Origin: Lepraria neglecta
Taxonomy: Eukaryota > Ascomycota > Lecanoromycetes > Lecanorales > Stereocaulaceae
Direction of reading: 5' to 3'
DNA length: 64,000 nt
Assembly: GCA_033220425.1 (NCBI GenBank)
Contig: CM065651.1
Coordinates: 1,860,001 to 1,924,000 of the forward strand
Every line of letters starts with the position of its first letter. Position 1 is the stretch's first letter. This document shows, in pieces, positions 1,435-63,224 of this stretch. Below the pieces are notes generated by a model that saw only the letters and a program-made list of their open reading frames with translations, did no database searches and was not told where the DNA came from. The position numbers and the translations under genes were made by a program.

Positions 1435-2887
1435 TGTTTCTAGTGGGCAGAGTAGATCATTCGATTACAATGCCAAACAGAGGACTGCTGCAATGGAAGT
1501 ACAGTTGGAAATCTGCTTGTTCACCTAAAACCTTGATGTACAAAGACCAGCTTACCACAATCAAAGGCGGGGCTTGGGAAGTTTTAGGAAATCACAGTGG
1601 GACGATCTTTGGGGATCAGTAAAGTACGAAATGGATACATCTCCACGTGCCTACCACTTCTTACCTATTTGTATTACCTTAGGTCGTGACTATAATATGA
1701 TCAGTCTTTTCAGATCGTAGTACCTGTCGTCCAATATCGGAAGCTCCCAACCTCCATCTCATCAACACCCTCAAACACCCTTCCGCGCAAAGCTCACTGA
1801 CTGCATGTATACTCTCTCCCATATATATTTACTAAGGTCAGTCGATCGAGCAGCAGCTATCTTAGCCATCAAAATGAACATGGCTGCTATTTTGAAGCCC
1901 ACCAGCTATATTCTTAATGGGATGGTTTACTGATACAAAAAACTGTGTGAGTCTTCAAGATCAGACATTGTCAGCACGTTGGTGATCTCGGCGTTATTGA
2001 TCTCAACTACCTGGCCCCTGAGCGTGTTGAGGATTCACATGTCAATTTTTTAGATGGCTGCATTAGCTAAGCGAAGTTTATATTGTTCCTGAAGTCAGTG
2101 GTGGGCCTATAGCTATTGGATGGATTGGAGAAAATATGGACCATTCATGCATGAAATTGAATCAAGTCGTGTTGGAAATTCGCTTAGTCAGCCGTCTCAG
2201 GCATAAAACACCTTCATCAACTCAATAAATCTCATAAAACGTCCTAAATTTATCAAGTCGCAACATTAATCGTCTTCGAATTGTCAAATTTGTTTTTCGG
2301 ATAGGAACGGTGGGCGTCAACTATTCGTTCGGCTCGGTGACTCAGTTTTCGGACTTTTGCAGGTATATTTGCCCGTCTTCCTGGGCAAGGCTGGTTAAGC
2401 GCTGACAAGACCCCTATCCATCCCACCAAGTTATATTTAGAAACTTTGCAAGCTTATAAGGCAACAATAACGACGCTTCCCTGCATTTCCAAGCTCTAAA
2501 ACTAACCTCATTCGAGGAGATGTTAACTTGTAAACGCTGCATAGAGGCTACGTTGTCCTCGATGTTTTGGGTACGGCGTTTGCCTTCGGCCTCATGCCCC
2601 TTTCTGATCGATGTCACCATTCATTCAGTCCTCATTATCAAATGGACTAAGAACGCTCTCTCCTCGCTCCATACTCGAGGAAGACGGGATCACCGTCTTA
2701 TTCGATCTCAAACCTACTTCTTGCTTGCCTTTGCATTGGTAGGAAGCGAGAATATCTTAGTTGAATGCAGCCTGATCTATATTTGGACTCGGCTATTGGA
2801 AATCATTTCGTCTGGGGCCGGCTTTCCGATGATCTAAATTATCGTCTCCAGCTGTGAGCCTTCCGGCTTCAGCGGCATCTGCTACCA
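1435..2887. other. Intergenic, no gene recognised
   Basis: Short open frames here (for example 2520-2837) show no recognisable domain or codon pattern. The stretch is AT-rich around 1850-2300. It presumably holds the sidA 3' UTR and the promoter of the ankyrin gene at 2888. Confidence 0.5.
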
Positions 2888-4927
2888 ATGCCAGATCCAA
2901 TATCGATAGTCTCACTGATTGAGGGATCGCTCAGCCTGATTCTACAGTGTGCCAGCGCGGCACAATGCCTACACAATATCGCTGAAAACTACAAAAAGAC
3001 TAGACTTACAGCAATGTCGATGATACAAGAAGTCGAGACCGTATTGTTAGCATGGCAGCGCATTAAGGAATGGTCACAAGGCCACGGAGAAGGAGACACT
3101 GTTGATGCAGAGCTTCTTCCAAGGCTGGGAGAATTGCTGGAGGGCGGTACAGCGGTCATATCCGCTTTATATGAAGACATCGCCAAGTACACCAGACCAG
3201 AGACTCTTAGCTTCATTCAACGGTCGAAAATAGCTTGGAATGAGAAAATTCTACAGGATCACCAACATCGCGTTCGGGGCCAAGTAATCGCAGTGGGCTT
3301 GCTGTTGCAGGTCTTCCAATTAGGTGCTCCAAAGATTCAAGCCGAGCTGTTTTCGAAATCGCACGATGGACTGAGGGACTCGAATTCAAGTTCTCGCTCA
3401 ATTGTTCCTTCCCACATGTCGTCACGTCTTTCTGGATCCACTGGTACCAGGGACAGCAACATCAGCAATACTAGTGCAGACTTGGCCTACCGCCCATTAC
3501 GTTTCGAGAATGAGCTTTTCACCGCCAGAGTCTACAAAAGAAATTACAGGAACTCTGCAATGTTTAGTGGGAACTCTTCGATGTTTCCACTTTCGCATAA
3601 AAGAGCCCGAAGCAGCAACGGGATGCTTGAAGACAACAAGACAAGTCCTAGTAGCGACTCTACTTTGCTCAAGATCCTCTTGACTGAGGAGCCGAACATC
3701 CATTTTGCTCTTCTGAAAGCAGTGGAAAGCAGGAACGTTGACTACGCAAGAGTTTTGTTGGCTCATGGAGCTCGACTCAGCGACCCATGCTCTAATTCGC
3801 CATGGACCAATCTGCACTTTGCTGCGTCCAGAGGAGACTTGAAATTGACTAAGTTCCTGTTGCAAGCTGGTTCCGATGTCACTCTTCATACGATAGGTAG
3901 GATGCAGGCCATCCATGTAGCTTGCAAAGCTGGCTCTCTCGACGTTATTCAAGAGCTGCATGCCGCTGGAGCCACCATTGACTGCGAAAATGACTGCGGC
4001 TTCCAGCCGCTGCATATTGTGGCAAATGAAATAAGTGCCCCTTCAGTGATACGGTGGCTTATCAGCAAGGGCGCCAACATTGATGCCCAGACCAAGACGG
4101 CTTTCAAGGAATCGGCGTTGCAGTTGGCACGCCGCAAATCTTGGCTAAGGGACAACGTGAATGTTCTTCGGGATCTCGGGGCCAAAGAGACTCTTGAATC
4201 CTCACCGCTTCGCTCCCCTCTACACCAAGCAGTGTTGTCTCGATTTCACCGCCATGTAGTAGGACTGCTCGAGGAGGGTGCCGATCCAAACTTCCGAGAC
4301 GCCGACAACGGCTCTACAGCTATCTTATTATTTGCTTCAGCGATCTCTGACGGCGCTCACGAGAAGGCTGACGACTGGACGATGTTCAAGAGACTTCTCG
4401 AACGCGGGGCAGACGTCAAAGCCAAGGACAACATGGGAAACCAGGTCTTGCACTATCTTACCAAGCGTACCTGGTATGATAAGCCTCATTCCACCAAAAA
4501 GGCTCAAGCCAGGAGGTATTTACTCACGTATCTGATTAAATCCGGAGCTGATCCCAATGCCATCAATGCTGAACAAGAGACGCCCCTGTTCCTGGCGATA
4601 AAATACCTCAACGTTCCATTTGTGGAGACTGTGTTAAGAACAGGGGCAGGGTATTTGCTCCCTACTGAGAAGCTGCGCCTGAGGATACATCTTCATGGAT
4701 TGAAGTCGCAATCGTACCTCCATAGAAATCCGACAGCTCTGGACCCAGATATGACACTCGAAAGAGATGAGGAACTGGATGAGATACTGCGATTGATACG
4801 TCTGTTGCCAGAGAACGACATGATCGAAGAAGTACAGTCGGCAGGGAAGGCCACCATGGAAGAAGCCCAGGCGACGGCTAACGCCTTGAGAGGGCGGACT
4901 CAAAGACGCAATTCGTGTCCTTTGTAG
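2888..4927 (+). CDS. Ankyrin-repeat protein with fungal STAND-type N-terminal module (copy 1)
   Basis: A 679-residue single-exon protein. Residues 1-145 form an alpha-helical module beginning MPDPISIVSLIEGSLSLILQ, of the kind found at the N-terminus of fungal NLR-like and ankyrin proteins. A Ser/Thr-rich linker follows and contains FENELFTARVYKRNYRN (about 205-221), which recurs almost unchanged in the next gene. From about residue 265 ankyrin repeats run to about 620, recognisable by patterns such as PLHQAV, LLERGADVKAKD and TPLFLAI. No nucleotide-binding domain is present. The neighbour at 6195 is a paralogue in the same direction and a third relative lies in reverse at 9130-10737. Known members of such families act in self/non-self recognition or stress signalling, but the function here is not known. 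The frame is intact with no sign of decay, in contrast to the third copy. Confidence 0.85.
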   Translation: MPDPISIVSLIEGSLSLILQCASAAQCLHNIAENYKKTRLTAMSMIQEVETVLLAWQRIKEWSQGHGEGDTVDAELLPRLGELLEGGTAVISALYEDIAKYTRPETLSFIQRSKIAWNEKILQDHQHRVRGQVIAVGLLLQVFQLGAPKIQAELFSKSHDGLRDSNSSSRSIVPSHMSSRLSGSTGTRDSNISNTSADLAYRPLRFENELFTARVYKRNYRNSAMFSGNSSMFPLSHKRARSSNGMLEDNKTSPSSDSTLLKILLTEEPNIHFALLKAVESRNVDYARVLLAHGARLSDPCSNSPWTNLHFAASRGDLKLTKFLLQAGSDVTLHTIGRMQAIHVACKAGSLDVIQELHAAGATIDCENDCGFQPLHIVANEISAPSVIRWLISKGANIDAQTKTAFKESALQLARRKSWLRDNVNVLRDLGAKETLESSPLRSPLHQAVLSRFHRHVVGLLEEGADPNFRDADNGSTAILLFASAISDGAHEKADDWTMFKRLLERGADVKAKDNMGNQVLHYLTKRTWYDKPHSTKKAQARRYLLTYLIKSGADPNAINAEQETPLFLAIKYLNVPFVETVLRTGAGYLLPTEKLRLRIHLHGLKSQSYLHRNPTALDPDMTLERDEELDEILRLIRLLPENDMIEEVQSAGKATMEEAQATANALRGRTQRRNSCPL

Positions 4928-6194
4928 GCGTTTATTGTTTTAGGTCTCAGACTGCATGATGGCTGGCCAATGCAGGCGCCTGCTCAGTAATATAGCTGCG
5001 CCGAAAGTTCTCGAAGAAGGGAGAATTGGCCGAAGGACGAGCAGTAGAAGTTCTAGCAGCTGAGCTTAGGAAATGAAAATTGGAGGTACAATTGACGAGT
5101 TGTTGATTTACGTGTCTTTGCAAAATTTAAGAACTCGCCTGTATTCAAATTTATTCGTCCAGGAGGGCTGAGCGGCCATCCACACTGCATCTCAATCTCT
5201 CCTTCCCATTATCCTACCCCTTAAAGCCTCAAAATTCACAGTCCGTATATGATAAGACTATCAGCAGGCTGCGACCATATCTCCTTTGATGTACTTCCAA
5301 AAGATTAGTATGTTGTTGGCGAAGGCATTACGTCGACCCTCGATGATTTCCAACAGCTTCAAGCAACTCGAAAGTAGCATCATTAAAGATCTTCCCCACT
5401 CACAAGTGCCATTACGGTTTTTGGAGCAGACTCGGTGCTCTCTTGCGATTGTGAAGATCGCGACAGGGTTGTTAGGCTCGGTAGCCAATAAACCGTGAGA
5501 AGGGACGCCGCAAGGCACGAGTGGTTCAATGCTAACGGCGGGATCTTATTACCTTGCAGTAGCTTGCCTACGCGCCTGCTTCGCCGCTCTATCATAAGCT
5601 TCGCCCCCCCAATCCGTCACGCTAACCACGTTTTTTCTCCGCCTTGTCTATTATTATCATACTGTTTGCAGTGGAGACTGGTGGCTGCCGGCGCTCTCTG
5701 AGAAATCAAAAATAGGCGCATAGGTTATAGAGATCTCAGTTTTCTGAGCCTTGGATGGTCATGAATATCTTCCAGGATGAGAACAGGGTGGTCGTGATGT
5801 CCAGATTCTGCAATCACCATATCTAAGTGCGTAATGAGCCGCTCCTTTCGCAGTGGAAATGCAATTTTGACTACATGCATGGTGCGTACAGATCTGTCAG
5901 CCTAATAGCCTTGCCGAGCCTCCCGCCGCAGCTTCGCCTGAACGCAATCGATTCGGCTCAAGATCTATTGGGAAGATTCTCCATTCCTTCCCACACCTGG
6001 AAGATCACGATATATCTGATCTGATACTCACAGGTTCGTTCACGCTCGCTGCAATTCTGGAGTACAAATGAGAAAGTGGAATCGGCTGATGCGATGAGTG
6101 TGGGTCCCAGCACAGCTTTATAAGTTCATAGCTTTTTCTGTTCTCGGCTCGACCAGACGCTCGTTACTCAGATCAAGAGCTCAAATCTTAAGCA
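4928..6194. other. Spacer between the two ankyrin paralogues
   Basis: No intact gene. At about 5278-5390 one plus frame reads VVGEGITSTLDDFQQLQ between two in-frame stops, which looks like worn-down coding sequence of a helical fungal N-terminal domain, but it is too short to assign. The rest holds the 3' region of copy 1 and the promoter of copy 2. Confidence 0.4.
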
Positions 6195-8057
6195 ATGGCA
6201 GACCCCATCTCCATCTTCTCCGTTATCCAGGGCTCCATTGGTCTGGCTCTTCAATGTGGGAACGTAATCCAGAGTCTCAACGACATAGTCGGAAAGTTCA
6301 ACCAAGCGCATCTTACTATCATATCCATTATCCAGGAGGTAGAAACGATTCAGATGGCCTGGATTCGGATCAGGGAATGGTCCGAAGAGCATGCAGAAGC
6401 CGGCACCGACACGAACTTCTTCGATCGACTAGGTCGATCGCTTGACTGCGGCACCTTGGTCATGACTGCTCTAGAGCAAGACCTTGAGGACTACAATATC
6501 AAGACCGCGCGGCCGACAATTGGCTTCAGGCAACGCTCAAGGGTGGCTTGGAACGAGACAGCGCTGCTTGATCATCAAAATCGTATAAGAGGGCAAGTCC
6601 AGGCCATGAGCCTCTTGTTACAGGTCCTTGAATTACCCACTCCAAAGGATCGCGGAACGTTGTTGCAAACAACCGAACGTATCCTTCGCAAGTCAGATGA
6701 GAGCGCCTACTCTATCGTCCCTTCCCGCCAATCGTCGTTGCGGGCGGTAGGTTCCCAGACAAGTAGAGCGAGTCGAGCCAGAGACAGCCGCATTAGCATC
6801 GAAAGCGGAGAGCTAGTCTACCGTCCCTTGAGCTTCGAGGACGAGCTTTTCACCGCAAGGGTGTATAAGCGGAATTATAGAAATGCTAAGATGCGTTCTC
6901 TTTTCCGATCGAAATCAAGGACTGGCATCGAAGGGGAAAGGATTAGCAATCGCAAAATCAGTGTCACAGACCATACTAGGCCTGAACGACGTTCGAGATC
7001 TCAAATCTTACTGCGTGCTTCAGAGTTTCTGCTTGGTGATTCGGGATCGGAGCCAGGGTCGCTTAAGGATGACGCAGAAGAGTGTGGGAGCATCCTGATA
7101 GCACTCGATAATGCAAAAGCAGACACGGAAGATCAGCATCAGCTACAGTTAAGGAATAGCTCAACAGAGCGTTCGGATTACCTGACTGGGATGCGCGAAA
7201 GGAGGCAATCACCCCAACGTCTTCCGGTCGGCAGTACCGATATCAACATACCCACGCCTATTCAAGAGGAGTTTCCCAAATCAGACCGAGATAATACGGA
7301 TGAGCAAGCCGGCGAATCTGACTATTCTGCTGAAAGCACGAGTAACGGTGAATTATCCGGGCTCGACAGACAAATTGGGGGATCATTTCTCGAAGAAGTC
7401 CACCCTATTTATGACCTGCCAAGCACGAATGACATTGGATCTGACCAAGCGCTCAGTGACGTCGATACATTGGAGGGGCCTTCTAGCGAAATCCTACACG
7501 TCGTCCACCCAGTCATGCCAGAACTTGAGTCGGTCTTATCCAACGCGCCTTCTTGGGGGGCAACGAGGCAAACCCTGAACACGGCCTTACACAGTGCAGT
7601 GAGGATGGGCAAGGCTGAGGATGTAAAAAGTCTTCTGGCCCGCGGCGCTCAGATCGATAATGATGAGGATTTCCAGGGGTGGGGCCCACTCCATTCAGCT
7701 GCATCAGCGGGAAATGTCGCCATGACACGGCTTTTGGTGCAGGAAGGTGCCTGGGTTGCCAGGAGAAATCATTACAGGATACAGCCTATCCACCTGGCTG
7801 CAAGAGTAGGCTCACTGGAAGTGGCTCAAATTCTGTTTGACGGCGGAGCGTCTGTCGACTGTACCGATGATGTTGGTCGTCAGCCGCTTCATTTTGTGTC
7901 AGAACATGCCGAAGCCCCTGATATGATAGAGTTCCTAGTCAGCAGAGGAGCTAGAGTTGATGTCCAGGATCTATTACATCGAACGCCATTGCGAATGGCA
8001 CGTGAATCGAGTCACGCTCAGAGTGTTGGTACCCTTCTGAATCTTCGAGCCAAGTGA
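6195..8057 (+). CDS. Ankyrin-repeat protein with fungal STAND-type N-terminal module (copy 2)
   Basis: A 620-residue single-exon paralogue of the gene at 2888. The start MADPISIFSVIQGSIGLALQ matches the first copy position by position, and both share the LNDI/LHNI helix, IQEVET, the WNE...HQ.R.RGQV stretch and the linker motif FEDELFTARVYKRNYRN (about 214-230). The linker between this motif and the repeats is much longer here (about 230-455) and acidic/Ser-rich. Ankyrin repeats occupy about 460-620 (TALHSAVRMGKAEDVKSLL, PLHSAASAGN, QPIHLAARVG). The protein stops where copy 1 continues with several more repeats, so either this copy has lost, or copy 1 has gained, C-terminal repeats. Tandem same-strand placement implies local duplication. 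Partner and ligand are unknown. Confidence 0.85.
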   Translation: MADPISIFSVIQGSIGLALQCGNVIQSLNDIVGKFNQAHLTIISIIQEVETIQMAWIRIREWSEEHAEAGTDTNFFDRLGRSLDCGTLVMTALEQDLEDYNIKTARPTIGFRQRSRVAWNETALLDHQNRIRGQVQAMSLLLQVLELPTPKDRGTLLQTTERILRKSDESAYSIVPSRQSSLRAVGSQTSRASRARDSRISIESGELVYRPLSFEDELFTARVYKRNYRNAKMRSLFRSKSRTGIEGERISNRKISVTDHTRPERRSRSQILLRASEFLLGDSGSEPGSLKDDAEECGSILIALDNAKADTEDQHQLQLRNSSTERSDYLTGMRERRQSPQRLPVGSTDINIPTPIQEEFPKSDRDNTDEQAGESDYSAESTSNGELSGLDRQIGGSFLEEVHPIYDLPSTNDIGSDQALSDVDTLEGPSSEILHVVHPVMPELESVLSNAPSWGATRQTLNTALHSAVRMGKAEDVKSLLARGAQIDNDEDFQGWGPLHSAASAGNVAMTRLLVQEGAWVARRNHYRIQPIHLAARVGSLEVAQILFDGGASVDCTDDVGRQPLHFVSEHAEAPDMIEFLVSRGARVDVQDLLHRTPLRMARESSHAQSVGTLLNLRAK

Positions 8058-14045: not shown

Positions 14046-14315
14046 TTGAAAGTCCCGGATATACAAAGCGTGGGAGGATTAGATGTATGGATATCAAAAT
14101 CTGTGAAAGAACCTCGATACATTGCCTCTGTAAGCTAACCAAATGCGGCAGGTGCAACCAACTTCCGCTTCAAGGTCCGAGTGCAAGTTCCATCCCTGTA
14201 TTTTACATATAGCAATGCTCTTCTTGTTGTTACTTCTAGTCGCTGATTGTTAGGGCATACATGGACAACATGATCACAAGGATAAAACAATAACCAGATT
14301 TGTACCACGGTGGCG
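14046..14315. promoter_or_regulatory. Shared intergenic region of divergent CYC2-like and permease genes
   Basis: The two genes are transcribed away from each other with 270 bp between start codons, so both promoters must lie here or overlap the 5' UTRs. I see no factor-binding site I can name. Confidence 0.4.
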
Positions 14316-16142
14316 ATGTCCCGGATTCAGTACTCGAACCTCGCTGCACCTCGAGACTCCCTAGAATTAGCAAGTCTTGCTTCCTCCGATGCAAACCTCT
14401 CACACAGCTCCCGATCTTCCTCGCCCTCAGGCATATCATCGTCTCGAAAGCAATCCCTCTCGAACGACGACCCTCGGTCTGCCTCCAACCCAGCAAGTAG
14501 ACGCCCAAATCCGCACAGCCGCTCCTATTCCGTTTCCTCTGCCTTCGACTTCGCCTCGAACCTCTTCCCCCTTTCCTCGACAGCTGCCGGCTACTCGGCT
14601 CTTGGTGACCCAAGCTCGAGACCTCCAGACCTGAATGGCGCCTCCCTTGAGAAACACAAGTCCCTCACCTACTTGAACGGCCTCTCCCTAATCGTTGGTC
14701 TCATCATCGGTTCGGGCATATTCTCGTCACCGGCACAAGTCAATATAAATGCGGGATCATATGGAGCATCACTCGTGGTATGGACAGTAGCGGGCGTATT
14801 GGCATGGACAGGGGCAGCAAGTTACGCAGAGTTGGGCGGAGCCATACCACTAAATGGAGGCGCTCAGGTCTATTTGAGCAAAATCTTTGGTGAATGGGCT
14901 GGCTTCCTGTTCACATGGTGCGCTGTGTTCGTACTGAAGCCTGGATCCGCTGCCATCATCGCTATAATATTCGGGGAATACGTCGTTCGCGCAGCTGTGG
15001 GGGCGGACGCTGAGAATGCAAGCGCATGGATTAATAAGGGCGTGGCGTTGGCAGGCATGGCACTGGTGGTGATATTGAACTGCATATCTACAAAGTTGGG
15101 CACTCGAATGGGTGACGTCTTCATGTTCTTCAAATTTCTTGCCCTGTTCGGGATCACCATCACCGGCATCGTCGTTGCAGCGACTGGATTTACCTGGCAC
15201 GGCCAACCAAACACCGACTGGAAGATGACGGGTTGGTTTGACGGAACCAGCACCGACCCCTCGAACTGGGCTGTCGCGCTCTATGCTGGACTTTGGGCTT
15301 TCGACGGTTGGGACAACACCAATTACGTCGTCGGCGAGTTCCTCTATCCTCACCGCGACCTCCCACGCGTCATCCACACGGCCATGCCCCTTGTCATACT
15401 CTCCTACCTCTTCGCCAGCATCGCCTACATCTTCGTCCTCCCCGTCTCGGTCATTCAATCCTCTAATACAATCGCCGTCCAGTTCGGCTCTGTGGTCTTC
15501 GGCCGCGTCGGCTCTCTGGTCCTTGCTATCATCGTCGCTGGCAGCTGTTTCGGCGCTTTGAACGCTGCAACATTCACAAGTGGCCGGCTTGTATATGCAG
15601 CTGGCAAAGAAGGGTTCCTGCCGGGCCTACTTGGACATGTCGGCATGCCTGGGATGGGCGAACCCACCAACCGCTTGCAGAGGCAGTCATGGGCTCGTAA
15701 AGCTGTGACTAGACTAATAGGTGACGACGAGGGCGGATTTGGCTTCACTCCCATCAACGCCATGGTTTTCAATGCCATGCTCACCGCGGTATACATAGTT
15801 GTTGGCGAATTCGGCACCCTCGTCACTTTTTACGGCGTCGCTGGCTACACTTTCTACTTCGTGACCGTTCTTGGCCTAATCATACTACGAATTAGGGAGC
15901 CTTATCTGGAGCGACCGTACAGGACTTGGATCAGTACGCCGATCATCTTTTGCTGCGTTTCATTGTTCCTCTTGAGCAGAGCGATTTTTGCAAAACCTGA
16001 GCAAACGGTTATTGTTGTGGCATTTGTAGCGGCAGGCGTGCCTGTCTACTTTTGGAGAGTGAAAGGTAGAGGCGGAAGGAGAAAAGGCGAGGAAGGGAGT
16101 TGGAAGTTTTGGAGAAGATGGGAAAGATGGATGAGAGGTTGA
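14316..16142 (+). CDS. Amino acid permease of the LAT/MUP1 (methionine permease) type
   Basis: A 608-residue single-exon APC-superfamily transporter. I start at the ATG at 14316 (MSRIQYSNL), because the open frame upstream begins with GTG. An approximately 110-residue Ser-rich cytosolic N-terminus is followed by about 12 hydrophobic segments. The first is YLNGLSLIVGLIIGSGIFSS, the unwound-helix GSGIF motif that binds the amino group of the substrate in this family. Later landmarks are SYAELGGAIPLNGG, WAFDGWDNTNYVVGE and LPRVIH. Length and signature match fungal high-affinity methionine/large neutral amino acid permeases (MUP1 group). Substrate is inferred from similarity. The C-terminus ends in a short basic tail. 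Frame and motifs are intact. Confidence 0.87.
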   Translation: MSRIQYSNLAAPRDSLELASLASSDANLSHSSRSSSPSGISSSRKQSLSNDDPRSASNPASRRPNPHSRSYSVSSAFDFASNLFPLSSTAAGYSALGDPSSRPPDLNGASLEKHKSLTYLNGLSLIVGLIIGSGIFSSPAQVNINAGSYGASLVVWTVAGVLAWTGAASYAELGGAIPLNGGAQVYLSKIFGEWAGFLFTWCAVFVLKPGSAAIIAIIFGEYVVRAAVGADAENASAWINKGVALAGMALVVILNCISTKLGTRMGDVFMFFKFLALFGITITGIVVAATGFTWHGQPNTDWKMTGWFDGTSTDPSNWAVALYAGLWAFDGWDNTNYVVGEFLYPHRDLPRVIHTAMPLVILSYLFASIAYIFVLPVSVIQSSNTIAVQFGSVVFGRVGSLVLAIIVAGSCFGALNAATFTSGRLVYAAGKEGFLPGLLGHVGMPGMGEPTNRLQRQSWARKAVTRLIGDDEGGFGFTPINAMVFNAMLTAVYIVVGEFGTLVTFYGVAGYTFYFVTVLGLIILRIREPYLERPYRTWISTPIIFCCVSLFLLSRAIFAKPEQTVIVVAFVAAGVPVYFWRVKGRGGRRKGEEGSWKFWRRWERWMRG

Positions 16143-50548: not shown

Positions 50549-52355
50549 ATGGCCGATGACCTTGGTGAAGAGGCGGACGATGAACGGGCACTCGAACTCT
50601 CAACGGTTGGGGCAATATACCCCGAACTTTCCCTCAATGCTTCGGGCTCGGACCCTTTCTCTGCCTGTTTAGATTTGGCAGTCGAACCTCTCAAAGGTCT
50701 ATTGATACAGTTCCCAACGGCTGAGGGCGCACCACCAGAAACGGAATTCACGCCTCCCAGCTCTACGGAGGAGGGGGCTTCTGCCCAGCATAATGTCGAA
50801 GGCAAACCGGCAACTGACGCTTTCCCGGCCACCAGTACTACACAAGATGCACATCGGCTGTCACATCTGCCTCCTCTGACCCTTGTGCTATCGCTTCCAG
50901 ACGGATACCCGGCCGAAAAGCCACCAGTATTCTACCTGTCATCACAGTGGCTCCCAGATAAAAAGTTACGAGAGCTACGCGCGGCCGGCCATACTATCTG
51001 GGATGATATGGGAAAGGATCAGGTGGTGTTTGCGTACATTGATCATCTAAGAGAAGCGGCAGAGAGGGGATTTGACCTTGGTCAGGGCGAGGCAGAGGTG
51101 CTGGAGGTCTCAACGGATCTCAAAGTGGCCCTGCTCGATTTTGACCTGAAGGCTAAGCGTGCTAAATTCGAGAAGGAGACGTTCGAATGTGGTATATGTC
51201 TTGGTACGTTCTGAGAGAGCTACGAGATTGGGCCAAGACTGATATACTGTTGCAGAGCCCAAGAAAGGCACCGTATGCCATCGCCTACTTCTCTGCTCAC
51301 ACGTGTTCTGCGTCGAGTGTCTCCAAGATTTCTACAACAGCTGTATCACTGAGGGAGACATCAGTAATGTCAAATGCATGGCTCCAAAGTGTGGTTCAGA
51401 GCCTACGTCAAGCATTGTTGCTACCCCAAAGAACCCAGAAGAAGACAGGACTTTAGAGCCAAGCGAACTTCTAAAAATACCACTAGAGCAGGAAACGGTC
51501 CAGAGATATGTCAAACTCAAGCGGAAGAAGCGCCTGGAATCGGATCCCACCACTGTCTACTGCCCGCGTCAATGGTGCCAAGGTCCAGCTCGGATCCCAA
51601 ACAAGAAGTCCGTCAAAGCAGAACCCGAGCAAGGAGCCGCGGGCGAGAATGGCAAGGAACCCGACCAAGTTGTGAACCCTGACGCATACCGGATCTCAAA
51701 TCCTGAGGCTTTACCTCCACCAGCCGAGCGCCTCGCAATTTGCGAAGACTGCGGCTTCGCATTCTGTAGAGTCTGCAAGGCAAGCTGGCACGGCGAATAT
51801 TTCGTCTGCTTCCCGCGCAGCCAATTCGAACTCACGGCCGAAGAAAGAGCTTCAGAGAACTACATGATGTTGCATACTCAACCTTGTCCTACTTGCAACG
51901 CACGCGCTCAGAAGACCTACGGCTGTAACCATATGATCTGCTTTAGGTGCAACACCCACTTTTGCTACCTTTGCGGCGCCTATTTGGAAAGAGGCAACCC
52001 ATATCAACACTATAATAACTGGAAAAGCGGATGTTATATGCGTCTTTGGGAGCTTGAACGTGGAGACGATGGTGAATTTGGTCAAGGCTTCCAAGGCGGT
52101 GGTGCAGACGGCGAGCCGGTGGAATGGTCAGATGAAGAGTCGGACGACGAGGAGAGACCGCCCCCTCCAGCTCCGGCAGCACCCGCCGTGCCACGACAGC
52201 ATGGCCAGCAAGCTCCTGCGCAGCGCGCGCGCGAGGTCAACGTCCGGCGCCGCAACGCTAACCCGGGACTTCAGCGTGCATTACGGATGATCCAAGATGA
52301 TGAAGAAGATGAATGGGATAGTGATGAGATGGATGATCTTGACGACTGGGAGTAG
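50549..52355 (+). CDS. itt1: RWD-RBR E3 ubiquitin ligase (ITT1/RNF14 type)
   Basis: Two exons, 50549-51203 and 51256-52355, separated by a 52-nt GTACGT...CAG intron, give 584 residues. Splicing joins FECGICL to EPKKGT, completing RING1. Domains in order: an N-terminal RWD (SYGIYPEL-like ALELSTVGAIYPEL, LPDGYPAEKPPVF), RING1 (CGICLEPKKGT, CSHVFCVECLQDFY), an in-between-RING region (YCPRQWCQGPA, CEDCGFAFCRVCKASWHG) and RING2 (CPTCNARAQKTYGCNHMICF), where the Cys in YGCNHM is the expected catalytic residue, then CNTHFCYLCG. The C-terminus is acidic (DDEEDEWDSDEMDDLDDWE). RBR ligases pass ubiquitin through a thioester on RING2; yeast ITT1 affects translation termination and human RNF14 handles stalled or crosslinked translation factors. 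Confidence 0.9.
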
Positions 52356-54763: not shown

Positions 54764-55175
54764 TTGGCTAGTTGCCGATACTTTGACGGAGATGTGGGGG
54801 ATCCACTCAGCGCAACGGCGAGCATAATGGATTTTATCCAGATCAGTGGAGACGTATTAACAGCTTGCTACCAGTGCATCGGCGCAGTCCATGATGCGCC
54901 AGCCGATATCCACCGCGTAATTAGCGAGGTCAGCAGCATGAAAGTGGTGCTTATTGACCTCAAGACAATGGCGAAGGACTCAGGTAGTGAGCTTCTTGCA
55001 TTACTCAAGATCTTCTCCCTCAATACAACACCCTCACTCCGAATTTCCGCTCTTATCGGATTTAATTCGAAGCTTGCCGGCGTCTACGCAAAAGAAGGGA
55101 GCATCGGTATATGGGTCTCGACCTTCCGTAACTGTGGGATTGCGGAATTATGTTGAGCCACGCTAACCGTTAATT
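54764..55175 (+). pseudogene. Orphan fungal STAND-type N-terminal domain, cut off by a transposon
   Basis: The plus frame 54764-55156 (130 residues) contains DPLSATASIMDFIQISGDVL, then YQCIGAVHDAPADIHRVISE and SSMKVVLIDLKTMA, the N-terminal helical domain that precedes NACHT, ankyrin or effector parts in many fungal proteins. A first Met before DPLS is plausible near the frame start. The domain decays into unrelated residues and stops at 55154-55156, about 20 bases before the first repeat of the retrotransposon. Nothing on the far side of the element (from 59748) obviously continues it. I read it as a gene whose downstream part was lost or separated by the insertion. Confidence 0.5.
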
Positions 55176-55305
55176 AGTGTTCTCACTCCTGAAGCTATAC
55201 ATACCGGCACAAGTGGATATGTAAATAGATGCTTGGGCGGTCTAACGCCAGGGCTAGCAGGCCTAGAAAGGCTACAACAGGTGCCCCAGCGCTAGAAAAC
55301 TCCCA
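55176..55305 (-). repeat. Split direct repeat B2
   Basis: 130 nt, on the plus strand starting AGTGTTCTCACTCC. It differs from B1 at five positions, each one a CpA-to-TpA or TpG-to-TpA change found in the B1 copy. It is the outer 3' end of the element read on the minus strand. Confidence 0.9.
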
Positions 55306-55376
55306 TGCCTAGGCGGTATAGACCTGGAGTGTAGATAGGCTATATATAGGCTATATATAAGGTGCGGGTAGGCGGG

Positions 55377-55558
55377 AAAGAACTGCTATGGCTCTGAAAG
55401 AGATGAACTCGACTGAAGAGCTAACTGCTGGTGGGATACTTATACAAATAGTGCTCTCAGGAAGTACGGATCTCTCGCTATAGCCTATAGTCATAGCGTA
55501 TGGCTGAAACCGCATCTGATTATGAGATATACTAACCTATAGTCCCACTGTAGCGATT
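55377..55558 (-). repeat. Split direct repeat A2
   Basis: 182 nt, ending (plus strand) in CACTGTAGCGATT, immediately next to B1. By my count it differs from A1 at 15 positions, all C/T in CpA or G/A in TpG context, with mutations on both copies. Confidence 0.9.
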
Positions 55559-55688
55559 AGTGTTCTCACTCCTGAAGCTATATATACCGGCACAAGTAGA
55601 TATATAAATAGATGCTTGGGCGGTCTAACGCTAGGGCTAGCAGGCCTAGAAAGGCTATAACAGGTGCCCCAGCGCTAGAAAACTCCCA
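55559..55688 (-). repeat. Split direct repeat B1
   Basis: 130-nt copy of B2, lying between the coding body and A2. It carries the TpA state at all five sites that distinguish it from B2, so it is the more heavily mutated copy. Confidence 0.9.
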
Positions 55689-55819
55689 AATAACACCCAA
55701 ATAACGCCCCCGTAGAGGGTTTCCGAGGAAGGCCTCGTAGGGTAGCTCCTGGCGAGTATCGCCAGTACTAGCGCTACTGGTACCGACGTAATACTATAAG
55801 TATTCGCTCGGGATAAGTG

Positions 55820-56310
55820 ACTATATATAGACGATAGGAGTCCGACTTCTATCGCCCTAGTAGCTAGATTTCTTCGTTACTAAGGCCTACCTCTTATACA
55901 GAGGTAGCGGCCCCCCTACGGAAGGAGTATCCTAAATAATAACCTTCTACCCTAAGTAATATAAGTACTTAACGAAGGTAACTCGTAGCGATCTCCCTTA
56001 TAAATACGGAGCCTCCTAGCTAGAAGAGGGGACTATTTAGTATGGTCTTCTACTTGAATAAATGGCGTAACGCCTTAACTGCGTATACTCTATCGCCGGA
56101 AGCTGCGATAGTAAGGGTAATACCCCGCCTGAAAGGGTCCGTTTTTAATACTGGGAGGGTGAGCTCTAGATGGTTCTTATATAGCCTTACTGAGCGACGA
56201 GTCAGGAACTACTGGCTGAATTCGTAATTATTATAATCTTTTGCGGTATAGGTAAACTCCCCTATACGGAGGAATGCGGCGAATATAAGGCAAAAGGCTG
56301 TATATAATAT
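55820..56310 (-). pseudogene. Tyrosine recombinase of the retrotransposon, mutated
   Basis: Read on the minus strand: AAFLRIGEFTY at about 56246-56280 carries the first catalytic Arg; further on come GYSFRRGAATSV, EVGLSNEEI, LLGR and KSDSYRLYI (about 55822-55935) in one frame with TAG/TAA between them. In active relatives the first of these boxes has His where Tyr stands here (H-x-x-R), the gap after NEEI is Gln and the gap after LLGR is Trp. All three are reachable by one C-to-T or G-to-A change. The last Tyr of SYRLYI is the likely nucleophile. The fold is clearly a tyrosine recombinase, but inactive. Confidence 0.8.
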
Positions 56311-57609
56311 TGAACCAGTCTCGTTATACTAGTTAAAATAAGGGAGGATCTATAGTAGTAGATCCTTAGTAATAGGACGTCTTTCTTTTGTCCCGGCCTC
56401 GCCCTGTAGGCGTTATATACCCGCTATTATACGTTCTAATTATAGGTTATGAAATACTGCGAGGCCCCTATAGCCTATATCTATATACGTTGATCTGACG
56501 CCTGTTAAGTAGGCCTTAACTATCTTTACCTTGACCCGTTTCGTGCTGAGATCTGCTATCTAGCTAGCTAATAAGTTTACTATTACTGGGAAGGGAGGTA
56601 TACTCCCCCTAAGTATATAATAGGTGATATATAACTGCGTTAGTATAGTATACGTTTTTCGGGTTTTTGTTGCTAACCCCTACTATAGGAGTCAAGCGGC
56701 TTCTCGTGGCAGTGCGGTCTAACTATACTACGATTATAGTAGGTCCCGCCCTGACTCAGCGGGGATGTAGCTAGGTGACCTAGCTAAGGGTATCTGTCAG
56801 CGATTTTTCGATATCGGAATCACGAGAGGTTATTAGCCAGTTAGTTAGCTCCTGTTGGGATCCATTCTGGAACCAAATAGATATTATATCTAGCCGTGAG
56901 CATAGCTATATCCCTTAGTAGGGCTATAGCTAGTCCACGGATCGAGGATTTATGCAGCCTATAGATACAGGCATTATTATCGCAATAAAGGGTTAATTTT
57001 AATCCCCGGAGTCGTTCTAACTATAGCTATATCGCGTGAAGAATAGCCTTCATTTCTTTAAATTATATATCTTTACGATAATAGCGTGTAGCGACCGGTA
57101 TACTAAAGATGTCCTGGACCGAGTATAAATGGGCTGGGTGATTAAGAATATAGCCCCCTATACCAAGCCTCCTAGAGGCGTTAGTCTATATATACTACGA
57201 TGGTCGACTAACGACGTGACGTAGTAGTTTAAGGCTATTCCAGTCCTTTAGGAAGGTATACTACTATAGTAGATCAGCCTTTATGGCTGCGGTGATATAT
57301 AGGATAGCTATTAGCCTCCGAATTACGTTAAAAAGTCGCCTTAAGAAGGCCCTTCCTAGAACTACAATTTTGGCAGTAAATAATAGAAAACCGACTGCTG
57401 ACTCAAGTTCCGAATATAGGATTATAGGCCTTTTAAGGAGGCCTTATACTATATTTCTTACCCTATCTAGCTTGTCCGGAGGGAGTCGTACCTATATAAG
57501 GATGCTATCGAATTCAATTCCTACAAAGTCGGCTTTTATACCTCTCGTATCCTTCGAATAGTTAACTGACAGGCCTAATTCGTTATATACTTGATCGAAT
57601 TAATAGCTA

Positions 57610-57885
57610 TATACGATAGCGTTAGCTTGTGGTGCCAGAATAGCGAAGAAATCGTCTAAGTAGTATAATACTATAGCCTATAGTAATACTGCGGTTATAA
57701 TCTAGTTAACCGCCTTTGTAAACAGGTTAAAGAGGAACGGTACTATACGTAAACTAAAGGGTAGATAGCGTTCTTTCCAGTAGAAACCATTATAGTAGAA
57801 ACCTAGTAGCTACTAGTCTAAAGTAGCTACTAGAATATGACGAAAGGCGTCTTTCAGGTCTCGCTTAACGAATTAAGCCCCTGGA
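57610..57885 (-). pseudogene. Reverse transcriptase of the retrotransposon, mutated
   Basis: One minus frame gives FVKRDLKDAFRHI (motif A with the first catalytic Asp), LLGFYYNGFYWKERYLPFS, LRIVPFLFNLFTKAVN and YYLDDFFAILAP (the YxDD motif C). In-frame TAG codons fall where related sequences have Trp or Gln (after LD, after AVN, after LL). The sequence type, with LPFxLRxxPFxFN and YLDDFFAI, fits DIRS-order reverse transcriptases better than those of Gypsy, Copia or LINE elements. RNase H should follow toward 57 kb but I could not delimit it. Confidence 0.78.
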
Positions 57886-59224
57886 CCTTGTTATAGCAGC
57901 GTATCCACGGCGTTATTATATATTATATACTCTAAGGTACCCTAATCGTAAGGTATACCATTATTAACTGAGCTGCTGTATAGAAACGAGAGGTTATGAA
58001 TACGTCTCTAGCCCCTATTATACTTCGGGACCAAGCCTAGCGGCAAATAGACGTACCGGGGCTCCGTCTGATAGTCTACTAGAGTTAACCAGTTATACTG
58101 AAGCTGTTTTTGAAGGTCCGCAGTTAATATATCTAGTGCTGCACGTACTAATTAGTGGTTTTAACTGAGGTATTAGATGTCTATACCTCTATACCCGATT
58201 TTTGCCCCCTTCCGAAGAATAGCCGCTAGGGTCTTGGCGAAGGTTTGATCGGGGTGATTCTTTAACTATTTATACTAACTATCGACGCGCAACGGGCCCT
58301 AATAGGGTAGATCTGGATCGGATAGATCGACGAGTAAGTATAGAAAACCTTCTACTACGTATAGTAGCGATATAGGTACCTGCGGGTACTCTAGGAGTTA
58401 TTCCGACTTGGAAATTCGATTTACTAGTAGTATTAAGTTGGCGTTATTCGAGGCCGAGTTAGCCCTTGAGCACGTATTCGCTAGGTGATTCTACTAATAT
58501 ATAGAATAGATATAAAGATACCTGCAGCGGTCGCGTAGATAGTGGCCGCTATTAAATGATCTATACGTGAATAGGCCTGAAGAGGAGGATTTTGAGGCAC
58601 TACTACCTGCGTATAACCTAGTATTGCCCTATACGGATATCCTTCGGACTAAGAGGTCTAAGCAGCGTCTATCATCGATCGACTAGGCTACTAGATCATC
58701 CTAGCCACTTAGGATACGTATAGTAACGAACGCGTGATGGTATGCGCGGATAGAGTCAAATTTATAGTATATATATAGCTCTATAAGGCGAAGGCGGTAG
58801 TCCGAAAGGGCTACCTGCAACTATATACTTACTATAGGGTATATATAGTAATAAACGGCCTGGCTATATACCTCGAAATACTACAGGAGGTATACTAACC
58901 CGTTAGTCTCCTGGATAGTATCGCTATCTATACGATTGGTATAGTTATAGGCTAGCTTTATAAGGTATTCCGTTTTAAATATTCCAAAGAAGATTTGCTT
59001 AAAATACTTAATATTAACAGTATAATAGCGCTTATAAAGACTAAGAAAGGGTTTCTTACCTTCGGCATGCCTGAAAGAGACTATTAGGCTATCCCCCTCC
59101 TCCGAGTCTATACTAGAAATAGATAAGTAGCGATAACGATGACGGCAACGGCGACTATATAACTTGTAGACTCGATAGCGATCCTGGTAATCGCGCTGGT
59201 CCTTTAGCGCCGCTAGGCGGTATT

Positions 59225-59455
59225 CTAACTCGCGAATTTGATTACGGTAACTAGGAGGAGGTATTTCGTCGATGAGGCTTGGGCTGATAGTTCCCGAAGA
59301 GGTAGTAGATACCTGTAATTCGGGGGGGGTATAGCATCCCTCCGAGTGGCTGTTTTGGCTTGTTTACGGTTCTTGGAGGAGGTCTTAGGGGCCGTCTTAG
59401 AGGCTTTCTTGGAGGCTTTCTTAGAGGTAGCTGATTTACGTGTAGCGACGGCCAT
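59225..59455 (-). pseudogene. Basic N-terminal part of the retrotransposon's first ORF
   Basis: The minus frame begins MAVATRKSATSKKASKKASK and stays Lys/Ser/Ala-rich for about 45 residues, then becomes unreadable with decay. Position just inside repeat A1 and the basic, disordered composition fit the start of a gag-like ORF1. It is not an independent chromatin-protein gene. Confidence 0.55.
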
Positions 59456-59565
59456 GACTAGGTGATACTAAGGTATTTATACTTAGAAAGAGGGGGGAAG
59501 AATGTAAGTATAGATAGGATGAAAGGATAGATGGACTAATATATATATAGGCTTAATTACTGTGA

Positions 59566-59747
59566 AAAGAACTGCTATAGCTCTAAAAGAGATGAACTCG
59601 ACTGAAGAGCCAACTACTGGTGGGATACTTATATAAATAGTGCTCTCAGGAAGTACGGATCTCTCGCTATGGCCCATGGTCATGGCGCATGGCTGAAACC
59701 GCATCTGATCATGAGACACACTAACCCACAGTCCCACTGTAGCGATT
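59566..59747 (-). repeat. Split direct repeat A1
   Basis: 182-nt copy of A2 at the 5' end of the element (minus strand). It begins AATCGCTACAGTGGGACT on that strand and is followed by the coding body. Confidence 0.9.
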
Positions 59748-61702: not shown

Positions 61703-63051
61703 TCATCGCATGCGCTGGGCAAAGTCCTTGAGGTACTCAGCCAGCTTCTGGACGTTTGCCATTGGCACAGCATTGTAGTTGCTTATCCGGATTCCACCAA
61801 CGCTACGGTGCCCTTTGAGACCCTGTAACGTTCGGCTCTCTGCGCCTTCCAAGAACTCCTTCTCCGTGGCAGCATCTCCAGCACGAAAGCAAATGTTCAT
61901 TCTGCTTCGGACGTCCTTGTGAGGTACGATTTGGTAGACACTTGGATTTTCGTCGAGGATACGGTAGATGATCTCGGCTTTGGCATTTGCAACAGCTTCT
62001 TGCCCTGAGACTTTAGTATCACCGTGGGTAGAGAGCAATGACCGCATGACCTGGCCTGCAATCCAGATGGAGAAGATGGGCATGGTGTTGTACAATGAGT
62101 TGTTTTTGGCAATGACAGACCAGTTCAGAATCGCAGGCGGAGACCATACTCCTACTGCATGTAGGAATGAGGGCGAAGGAACCGTAGCCAGGATGTCTTT
62201 GCGGACGATTACCAAGGTCACATCCGTGATTCCTATTGTCCATACATTAGTTGAAGACTGTTTTGCATTTAGGCCCGAGAATATTCACCAATATTCTTCT
62301 GTGCCCCTCCGTAGATCACTGCATACTTGCTCACGTCGACTCGACGGCTGAGGAAGTTGGAGCTCATGTCAGCGACTACCAATCTGTCGTCTTCGCCATC
62401 TTTCGACATAAGACATTTGGGAAAGCTTGGAAATTCTACACCGTCCACTGTCTCGTTGTCACAATAGTACGCAAACGCACTCCCTCCACGAGAGGTCATC
62501 TTCCACGTATCCTCGTGCGGTATCTTGCCAAATTTGCCTTCATTCCATTCCCTAGCATCCGTAACAATGCTGACAAAATTCTCGGCCTTTCCGCCGTTCT
62601 TCAACGGCTCTAGAAGGTTTGCTGCCTCTTGCGATGCCTTGAGCGACCAAGAGCCAGTGACAATATATTCAAGACGTAATCCTTCCCGAATCTCCCTCCT
62701 GACTCTCTCCAGAATCTTCTCTTCGTCACTTCCGAGCTCTTTCTCGGCCAGCCTTCTTCTCTTCTCCACCCAAACAGCTACCATGTTGTAAACCACAGCA
62801 CTGAACTCCCCGCTTCCACCACCATGCATGAAGAGGATGTCATAGTTGTCCGGTATACCCAGCAATGAGACCAGCGCAGCCTTTGTGTCTGCCAAAATCT
62901 TGTTGGCCGTGGGGGAGCGGTGGGATATTTCTGCTAACGAGAGACCGCTGTCCTCGAAGTTGACGAATGCACGGGCCCCTTCTTCGAGGACAGGAGTAGG
63001 CAGGGGGGCGGGACCTGCCCCGAAGTATGCTACCTCTTCTCTGGAAGGCAT
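61703..63051 (-). CDS. SER1: Phosphoserine aminotransferase
   Basis: Two exons, 62289-63051 and 61703-62232, with a 56-nt intron (GTGAAT...TAG), give 430 residues. I start at the ATG at 63051 ([18 protein letters not shown]), since the frame beyond it lacks an ATG and family members start here. Landmarks are [25 protein letters not shown] (phosphate-binding loop), [32 protein letters not shown] with the cofactor-binding Asp, and YGGAQKNIG, whose Lys forms the PLP Schiff base and sits two residues before the splice. It converts 3-phosphohydroxypyruvate and glutamate to phosphoserine in serine biosynthesis. The C-terminal part ([11 protein letters not shown]) is intact. It is divergently transcribed from the homoaconitase gene. 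Confidence 0.93.
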
Positions 63052-63224
63052 CTTGCAGTGCAAGTGGAGAGGAATTAATTCGTTTGCTTCAACGCTGGTC
63101 AAGACAGAATTCCGCAGCCTTTCGGACAGGACTCAAAGTCCTACAATTTTTCTCCGAACTTCGCCAGAACCACTGCCACCCCCATTGTGCTTTCTTGGAC
63201 GTTCCTTAGACTGCGTGAGGCGAG
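63052..63224. promoter_or_regulatory. 173-bp divergent promoter of SER1 and LYS4
   Basis: Start codons of two amino acid biosynthesis genes lie only 173 bp apart in opposite directions, so regulatory sequence is probably shared. It contains an inverted repeat, AGGACT-CAA-AGTCCT (63128-63142), whose GGACTCA differs by one base from the general amino acid control site TGACTCA. Whether a Gcn4/Cpc1-type factor binds there is not shown. Confidence 0.4.

What the first reader, a model, noticed from the sequence alone, without database searches (positions are those of the whole stretch)
55176..59747. Tyrosine-recombinase retrotransposon with A1 ... B1-A2 ... B2 split direct repeats in a filamentous ascomycete
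Seen directly: two 182-nt copies (A) and two 130-nt copies (B) in the order A1, body, B1, A2, B2 on the minus strand, with B1 and A2 abutting. A reverse transcriptase (RDLKDAFRHI, YLDDFFAIL) and a tyrosine recombinase (LRIGEFTY, SFRRGAA, SYRLYI) are readable between them. Split direct repeats with a tyrosine recombinase are the mark of PAT/Ngaro-type elements. To my knowledge these are much less common in Pezizomycotina than Gypsy, Copia or Tad elements, so this may be a poorly described family.
Basis: partly seen in the sequence, partly recalled or inferred. Interest (0 to 1): 0.85.

Follow-up and report, generated by a model that had tools for sequence, protein, structure and literature searches.

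The report
Ngaro-type retrotransposon with short solo copies
This is a fungal jumping gene that copies itself through RNA and pastes itself in with a Cre-like recombinase; the full-length copies have been mutated by the fungus's genome defence, while a much shorter version of the same element has mostly escaped that damage.

Summary
Window 55174-59745 (minus strand) is a 4,572-bp tyrosine-recombinase (YR) retrotransposon, A1(180)-body(3,877)-B1(132)|A2(180)-spacer(71)-B2(132), with reverse transcriptase, RNase H and YR; no methyltransferase or DDE integrase was found. It fits Ngaro. This copy is dead, mutated in the CpA-to-TpA pattern of repeat-induced point mutation (RIP). Pattern counts in the 42-Mb host genome give 50 B|A junctions and 45 A>body boundaries. 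Uninterrupted paralogous target sites show that one full-length and one short copy each inserted without target-site duplication or loss. It has the same two ends and is mostly un-RIPed at its start (58 of 76 solos, 4 of 24 A2 behind a junction). Body units without the short unit are rare (3 of 44). The solo parallels SIRE, the A2-B2 short form of trypanosome VIPER, and the solo AB repeats of Cafeteria Ngaro; whether SIRE moves or is a remnant is left open in print. RIP suggests that most solos here did not come from RIPed full-length copies. New member of a known kind, with an informative short form.

The parts
55174..59745 (-). whole element, 4572 bp, ends TCGCTA...CACTAA
   Evidence: ends set by comparing 24 solo, 33 junction-bearing (30 distinct) and 13 A1 loci and by uninterrupted target sites
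59566..59745 (-). A1, 180 nt (left end)
58881..59455 (-). ORF1 / Gag-like region, broken (approximate limits)
   Evidence: frames; longer open pieces in L046 and L089; no Pfam family at its cut-off for the pieces scanned
57189..58397 (-). reverse transcriptase region, broken
   Evidence: tblastn with P0002, 79%; P0002 hits PF00078 at 2.6e-12
56676..57185 (-). RNase H region
   Evidence: tblastn with P0243, 82%; P0243 hits PF13456 at 0.0096 in Pfam and NF041175 (ribonuclease HI) at 0.00034 in NCBIfam, all below the curated cut-offs
55771..56796 (-). tyrosine recombinase region, broken (19 stops; catalytic His > Tyr)
55557..55688 (-). B1, 132 nt
55556..55557 (-). B1|A2 junction CACTAA|TCGCTA
   Evidence: the junction pattern matches 50 places genome-wide at <=3 mismatches, reversed control 0
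55377..55556 (-). A2, 180 nt
55306..55376 (-). spacer, 71 nt, present in full-length and solo copies
55174..55305 (-). B2, 132 nt (right end); A2-spacer-B2 is the 383-bp unit also found alone

Best explanation
The locus is a RIP-killed copy of a multicopy Ngaro-type YR retrotransposon. Shown: architecture, genes, genome-wide copies, and precise insertion without target-site duplication. Inferred from the general model for this order (recalled): the transcript lacks the outer ends, the internal B1|A2 stretch serves as template to restore them, a circle carrying a B|A junction forms, and the YR recombines that junction with weakly CTAN-like target DNA. Because the repaired circle would hold the same junction twice (B1|A2 and B2|A1), recombination between two such sites can separate a 4.19-kb A-body-B unit from a 383-bp A-spacer-B unit. 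My leading account of the about 90 solos is that such recombination, before or soon after integration and before the next meiosis, leaves or inserts the 383-bp unit. That unit is then largely spared by RIP, probably because of its length, while full-length copies are mutated.
Against: No circle, RNA or protein was observed. The excess of A-spacer-B (about 90) over A-body-B (3) is not predicted by simple resolution of one circle into two. The fixed order (0 of 45 reversed) is not predicted if both junctions of a circle integrate equally. RIP-type change has been reported for a 275-bp repeat in S. nodorum (PMC2621366, passage), so a length limit near 400 bp is not universal. Right flanks of full-length copies tend to look more RIPed than those of solos (TA/AT above 1.2 in 10 of 30 against 5 of 24; p 0.053), so location may contribute. 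No DIRS-order tree with named references was built. RNase H and YR Pfam matches are below the curated cut-offs; the model is weak (pLDDT < 50) around the catalytic Tyr. Of three sites tried for an empty counterpart, one (solo L087) gave only its own flanks.
Confidence: 0.85

Rival explanations
1. The 383-bp solo is an independently mobile non-autonomous element (a fungal counterpart of SIRE): its circle or cDNA is made and integrated by RT and YR supplied in trans.
For: It has both complete ends, and one solo is shown to sit precisely in an otherwise uninterrupted repeat. Three solos on different contigs are identical over 383 nt. Solos far outnumber A-body-B units (142 spacer>B with 50 junctions, against 3 of 44). 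Some variants are shared by several solos at separate loci. Most are un-RIPed at the start.
Against: Both solo subfamilies also exist as full-length copies, so no solo lineage without a full-length relative was shown. A solo has no B|A junction from which to restore its own ends after transcription (inference).
Confidence: 0.3
2. Solos are remnants of full-length insertions made by ordinary homologous recombination between A1 and A2, like solo LTRs.
For: Proposed for solo AB repeats in Cafeteria (PMC8547959, section 11 read). It gives exactly this structure, and two of 22 scored solos are heavily RIPed.
Against: Most solos lack the RIP changes that full-length copies carry (unmutated A start in 58 of 76 solos, 4 of 24 A2 and 17 of 45 A1), so most did not come from RIPed copies. 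By distance alone B1xB2 exchange (383 bp apart) should exceed A1xA2 (4.19 kb apart; inference), yet A-body-B is rare (3 of 44).
Confidence: 0.25
3. The split repeats are not one element: a 4.19-kb A-body-B element inserted beside a pre-existing 383-bp element.
For: The 383-bp unit and the A-body-B unit each exist alone, and all ends are alike.
Against: B1 and B2 share the subfamily state in every pair read, although both states are common among solos (12 of 24 solos GTG). The order is always body unit first (0 of 45 reversed). One empty site lacks the whole 4.57-kb unit.
Confidence: 0.03
4. PAT/DIRS-type or LTR-type element rather than Ngaro.
For: Split direct repeats also occur in PAT (PMC4157794, passages).
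Against: The YR ORF overlaps the RNase H ORF, leaving no room for a methyltransferase between them, and none was found in the ORFs scanned. No LTR, target-site duplication or integrase was found.
Confidence: 0.07

Closest known systems
Ngaro retrotransposons, fungal groups 1-4 (PMC3783388)
   Same: A-pol-B-A-B repeats, RT, RNase H and YR, no methyltransferase
   Different: Reported there from Basidiomycota plus one truncated copy without terminal repeats in an ascomycete; here 50 junction matches and many solos in one RIP-affected genome. Which of the four groups it belongs to was not tested.
Ngaro family of Zymoseptoria tritici (PMC4502367)
   Same: A complete Ngaro family in a filamentous ascomycete
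   Different: The passages read give one family and a table line only; no sequence was compared.
Ngaro types 1-4 of Cafeteria burkhardae with solo AB repeats (PMC8547959)
   Same: A1-ORFs-B1A2B2 plus isolated AB repeats in the genome
   Different: There the solos are suggested to be recombination remnants; here RIP gives a time mark, and both ends, one insertion site and A-body-B units are shown.
SIRE, the short form of VIPER in Trypanosoma cruzi (PMC6681497, PMC12278014; passages)
   Same: It is the A2-B2 region of a split-repeat YR retrotransposon: about 185 + 30 + 220 bp, against 180 + 71 + 132 bp here
   Different: A different YR-retrotransposon group and host; its origin and mobility are left open in the passage read

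Membership tests
Ngaro | split direct repeats ordered A1-ORFs-B1-A2-B2 | tested here: met
   41 of 44 body>B boundaries lead into the B|A junction
Ngaro | reverse transcriptase and RNase H | tested here: met
   PF00078 2.6e-12; RNase H families only weakly (PF13456 0.0096, NF041175 0.00034), below curated cut-offs
Ngaro | tyrosine recombinase with catalytic R, H-x-x-R, Y | tested here: met
Ngaro | no methyltransferase domain | tested here: met
   YR ORF overlaps RNase H ORF; no methyltransferase family in P0001, P0002, P0243 or the ORF1 pieces scanned
Ngaro | insertion without target-site duplication | tested here: met
   uninterrupted paralogous sites for one full-length and one solo copy; 24 solos against shuffles
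Ngaro | RT/YR placed with Ngaro in a DIRS-order tree | not tested
PAT / DIRS | methyltransferase domain with RT-RNase H | tested here: not met
LTR retrotransposon | long terminal repeats, DDE integrase, target-site duplication | tested here: not met
   the body was scanned as ORF pieces, not in every frame
Crypton | YR without reverse transcriptase | tested here: not met
   RT present
SIRE-like short form (A2-spacer-B2) | short element corresponding to the A2-B2 region of a split-repeat YR element | tested here: met
   definition from PMC6681497 (passage)
SIRE-like short form (A2-spacer-B2) | mobilised in trans (a reading, not a settled trait of SIRE) | not testable with these tools
   needs strain comparison or an assay

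The most novel reading that the evidence does not exclude
In this fungus the 383-bp A2-spacer-B2 unit is a mobile non-autonomous element in its own right, moved by the Ngaro recombinase and short enough to escape RIP. The split direct repeat would then be two independently excisable units in tandem, and the short unit, needed as repair template, would also be the element's RIP-proof way of persisting.
Probability: 0.3. Interest if true: 0.65.

Novelty: new member of a known kind. Interest (0 to 1): 0.45.

Why it matters
Curated Ngaro elements in filamentous ascomycetes are little documented in the papers found here, and this genome gives a large sample with two subfamilies, one little-damaged copy and uninterrupted target sites. 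Short A2-B2 forms have been reported from trypanosomes (SIRE) and a marine flagellate, and the passage read on SIRE leaves open whether it moves or is a remnant. RIP acts as a natural time mark that those hosts lack as far as I know (recalled), so comparing strains of this fungus could decide the question. It also offers a test of how length shields repeats from RIP.

Tried and rejected
Considered and rejected: unrelated tandem insertion; LTR or PAT/DIRS element; a structured RNA in the 383-bp unit (z -0.90, 17 of 100 shuffles fold as well).

Withdrawn along the way: after I thought the GTG subfamily existed only as solos (0 of 30 full-length). One search showed GTG B units beside junctions and one search showed 297T in B1 of L098, L099, L100, L101 and L103, so full-length GTG copies exist.

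Bias: of the 22 solos scored were fetched with an un-RIPed start pattern, which favours clean solos; L027 came and L087, L088. The last two are heavily RIPed and, by their flanks, probably copies of one duplicated segment. The less biased comparison is, on the 100 listed of 142 spacer>B places; these 100 are the ones without mismatch, and the 24 behind a junction include one solo-solo dimer. Of 24 solo-type loci classified, the two of 372 nt (L031, L032) were left out. Solos whose A or B is split or cut (for example L033, L054, L055) were left out. The 33 junction-bearing loci are 30 distinct copies.

Led nowhere: NCBIfam named no YR-retrotransposon family; a search of solved structures with P0001 alone gave nothing; no empty site was found for solo L087. 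Paper searches. I make no claim that RIP dating of such short forms is absent from print; I did not see it in these listings.
Full report
What is there. One search confirms two direct-repeat pairs in window 55173-59747. Read on the minus strand the order is A1, body, B1, A2, B2. Comparing many genomic copies fixes the ends: the units begin TCGCTA (TTGCTA in two mutated A2) and end CACTAA (TACTAA in four), so the element is 55174-59745, 4,572 bp: A1 180, body 3,877, B1 132, A2 180, spacer 71, B2 132. B1 and A2 meet as CACTAA|TCGCTA.

Copies in the genome. The window lies at G000:C6:1860001-1924000 in a 42.02-Mb assembly of 11 contigs. Patterns with up to 3 mismatches count, genome-wide, 192 A starts, 192 B ends, 50 B|A junctions, 142 spacer>B, 44 body>B and 45 A>body boundaries, with 0 for each pattern read backwards. 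41 of 44 body>B boundaries run into a junction; nine junctions have no listed body>B boundary, five of which have mutated body sequence upstream by alignment and one a second short unit. 24 of 45 A1 lie 4,142-4,175 bp from the next junction match; 17 lie farther and four have none within 60 kb, presumably through nested insertions or decay (not examined one by one). No A1 (0 of 45) is preceded by a listed junction, so the body unit comes first.

Short forms. 142 spacer>B against 50 junctions leaves about 90 units A-spacer-B without a body, 383 bp long (372-384 in the 24 loci classified); among the 100 spacer>B places listed, 76 have no junction before them. Three body>B places (C1, C5, C9) lack the A2-spacer-B2 part; at C5 and C9 both ends were read and are complete, at C1 only the right end was found. 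One locus (L102) has a truncated A-spacer-B unit joined to another A-spacer-B unit.

Insertion. For the full-length copy at C3:2117290 the two flanks joined give 180 nt that match 26 uninterrupted repeat copies over 180 of 180 nt (three more over 173-177), and for solo L040 (C1:6239721) the joined flanks match six uninterrupted copies without change of length (42 matches listed, 40 of 58 candidates scored). Eight and six of these sites were read: the element sits between two adjacent target bases, with nothing duplicated or lost. A third site (solo L087) gave only its own flanks. In 24 solos no target-site duplication of 1-8 bases stands out clearly from shuffles (2 of 24 at two bases against a mean of 0.4). 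The left flank resembles the element's own right end: A at -2 in 27 of 37, C at -4 and T at -3 in 19 of 37 each; A is rare at -1 (4 of 37) and at +1 on the right (3 of 54) (binomial tests, not corrected for the positions looked at). Exact CTA at -4 to -2 occurs in 7 of 37, so the preference is weak.

RIP. In the 383-bp part of 30 full-length copies, 601 of 635 changes relative to the commonest base of solos are CpA>TpA or TpG>TpA. The median is 19.5 of 58 sites, against 1 in 22 solos; the solo sample is biased toward clean copies. On the 100 listed spacer>B places, an unmutated 26-nt A start is found in 58 of 76 solos and 4 of 24 A2 behind a junction (Fisher p 2.5e-7); for A1 it is 17 of 45. 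Two of 22 scored solos are heavily RIPed. Right flanks of full-length copies tend to be more RIP-like than those of solos (10 of 30 against 5 of 24 above TA/AT 1.2; p 0.053), so location could contribute. RIP is said to need more than about 400 bp (PMC2621366, passage, citing Neurospora work), but the same paper reports RIP-type change in a 275-bp repeat, so length is a likely, not proven, reason.

Two waves. Three linked positions in B (284/297/314) separate ACA and GTG types. 12 of 24 solos are GTG (ten in its table, L031 and L032 by their printed sequence). In the 33 junction-bearing loci (30 distinct copies) all B units are ACA. Genome-wide an exact 31-nt pattern finds 44 GTG-type B units, of which 3 lie as B1 and 6 as B2 beside a junction and one in the C1 body unit; the other 34 have no listed junction beside them. 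The B1 of five further, more decayed body-bearing copies has the GTG mark at 297. No copy with mixed B1 and B2 was seen among those read on both sides.

Mechanism. Shown: architecture, genes, precise insertion, both single units, co-varying repeats, RIP. Inferred: the replication cycle through an RNA and a circle repaired on B1|A2, as described for this order (recalled; PMC5006619, passages, mentions circular intermediates for DIRS-1). A repaired circle would contain the same junction twice, so the YR could separate the two units. The excess of solos over A-body-B units (about 90 to 3) and the fixed order are not explained by free resolution of a circle. They fit better if the left end and the internal junction recombine preferentially, or if solos are moved on their own.

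Comparison. The element meets the tested features of Ngaro; tree placement is missing. Solo AB repeats are known from Cafeteria Ngaro (PMC8547959, section 11 read), and the A2-B2 short form SIRE from VIPER (PMC6681497 and PMC12278014, passages), with its mobility left open. The contribution here is another lineage, exact insertion sites, the counterpart A-body-B units and the RIP time mark. Relatives of both proteins are numerous in public sequence (604 and 2093 at E<=0.001), and repeat tables list Ngaro in several ascomycetes (PMC4502367, PMC7542391, PMC9281073, passages), so the family is little described rather than rare.

Noticed in passing
L033 (C1:1992980) and L073 (C2:1193172): Other insertions inside units of this element: about 608 bp in B with a 3-nt overlap and about 586 bp in A with a 9-nt overlap, as expected of elements that duplicate their target.
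   Followed up: no
L041 and L058 flanks: A repeat of about 143 bp at 97-98% identity lies beside two solos and again elsewhere in L041.
   Followed up: no
full-length copies: RIP fades toward the outer ends: A1 is less mutated in its outer part than near the body, and the outer end of B2 less than the spacer.
   Followed up: partly
C4:1291827-1296402 (L029, L104): One full-length copy is nearly free of RIP in its A2-spacer-B2 part (1 of 58 sites) and has uninterrupted RT and YR frames; a stop separates RT from RNase H, and its ORF1 was not read.
   Followed up: partly
left flanks -1 and right flanks +1: A is under-represented directly at both insertion borders (4 of 37 and 3 of 54); unexplained.
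   Followed up: no
window 2858-4927, 6192-8057, 14286-16142, 51243-52355, 62269-63132: Neighbouring genes: an ankyrin-repeat protein, a second ORF similar to it by eye, an amino-acid permease, an IBR-domain protein and a class V aminotransferase (the second ORF was not scanned).
   Followed up: no
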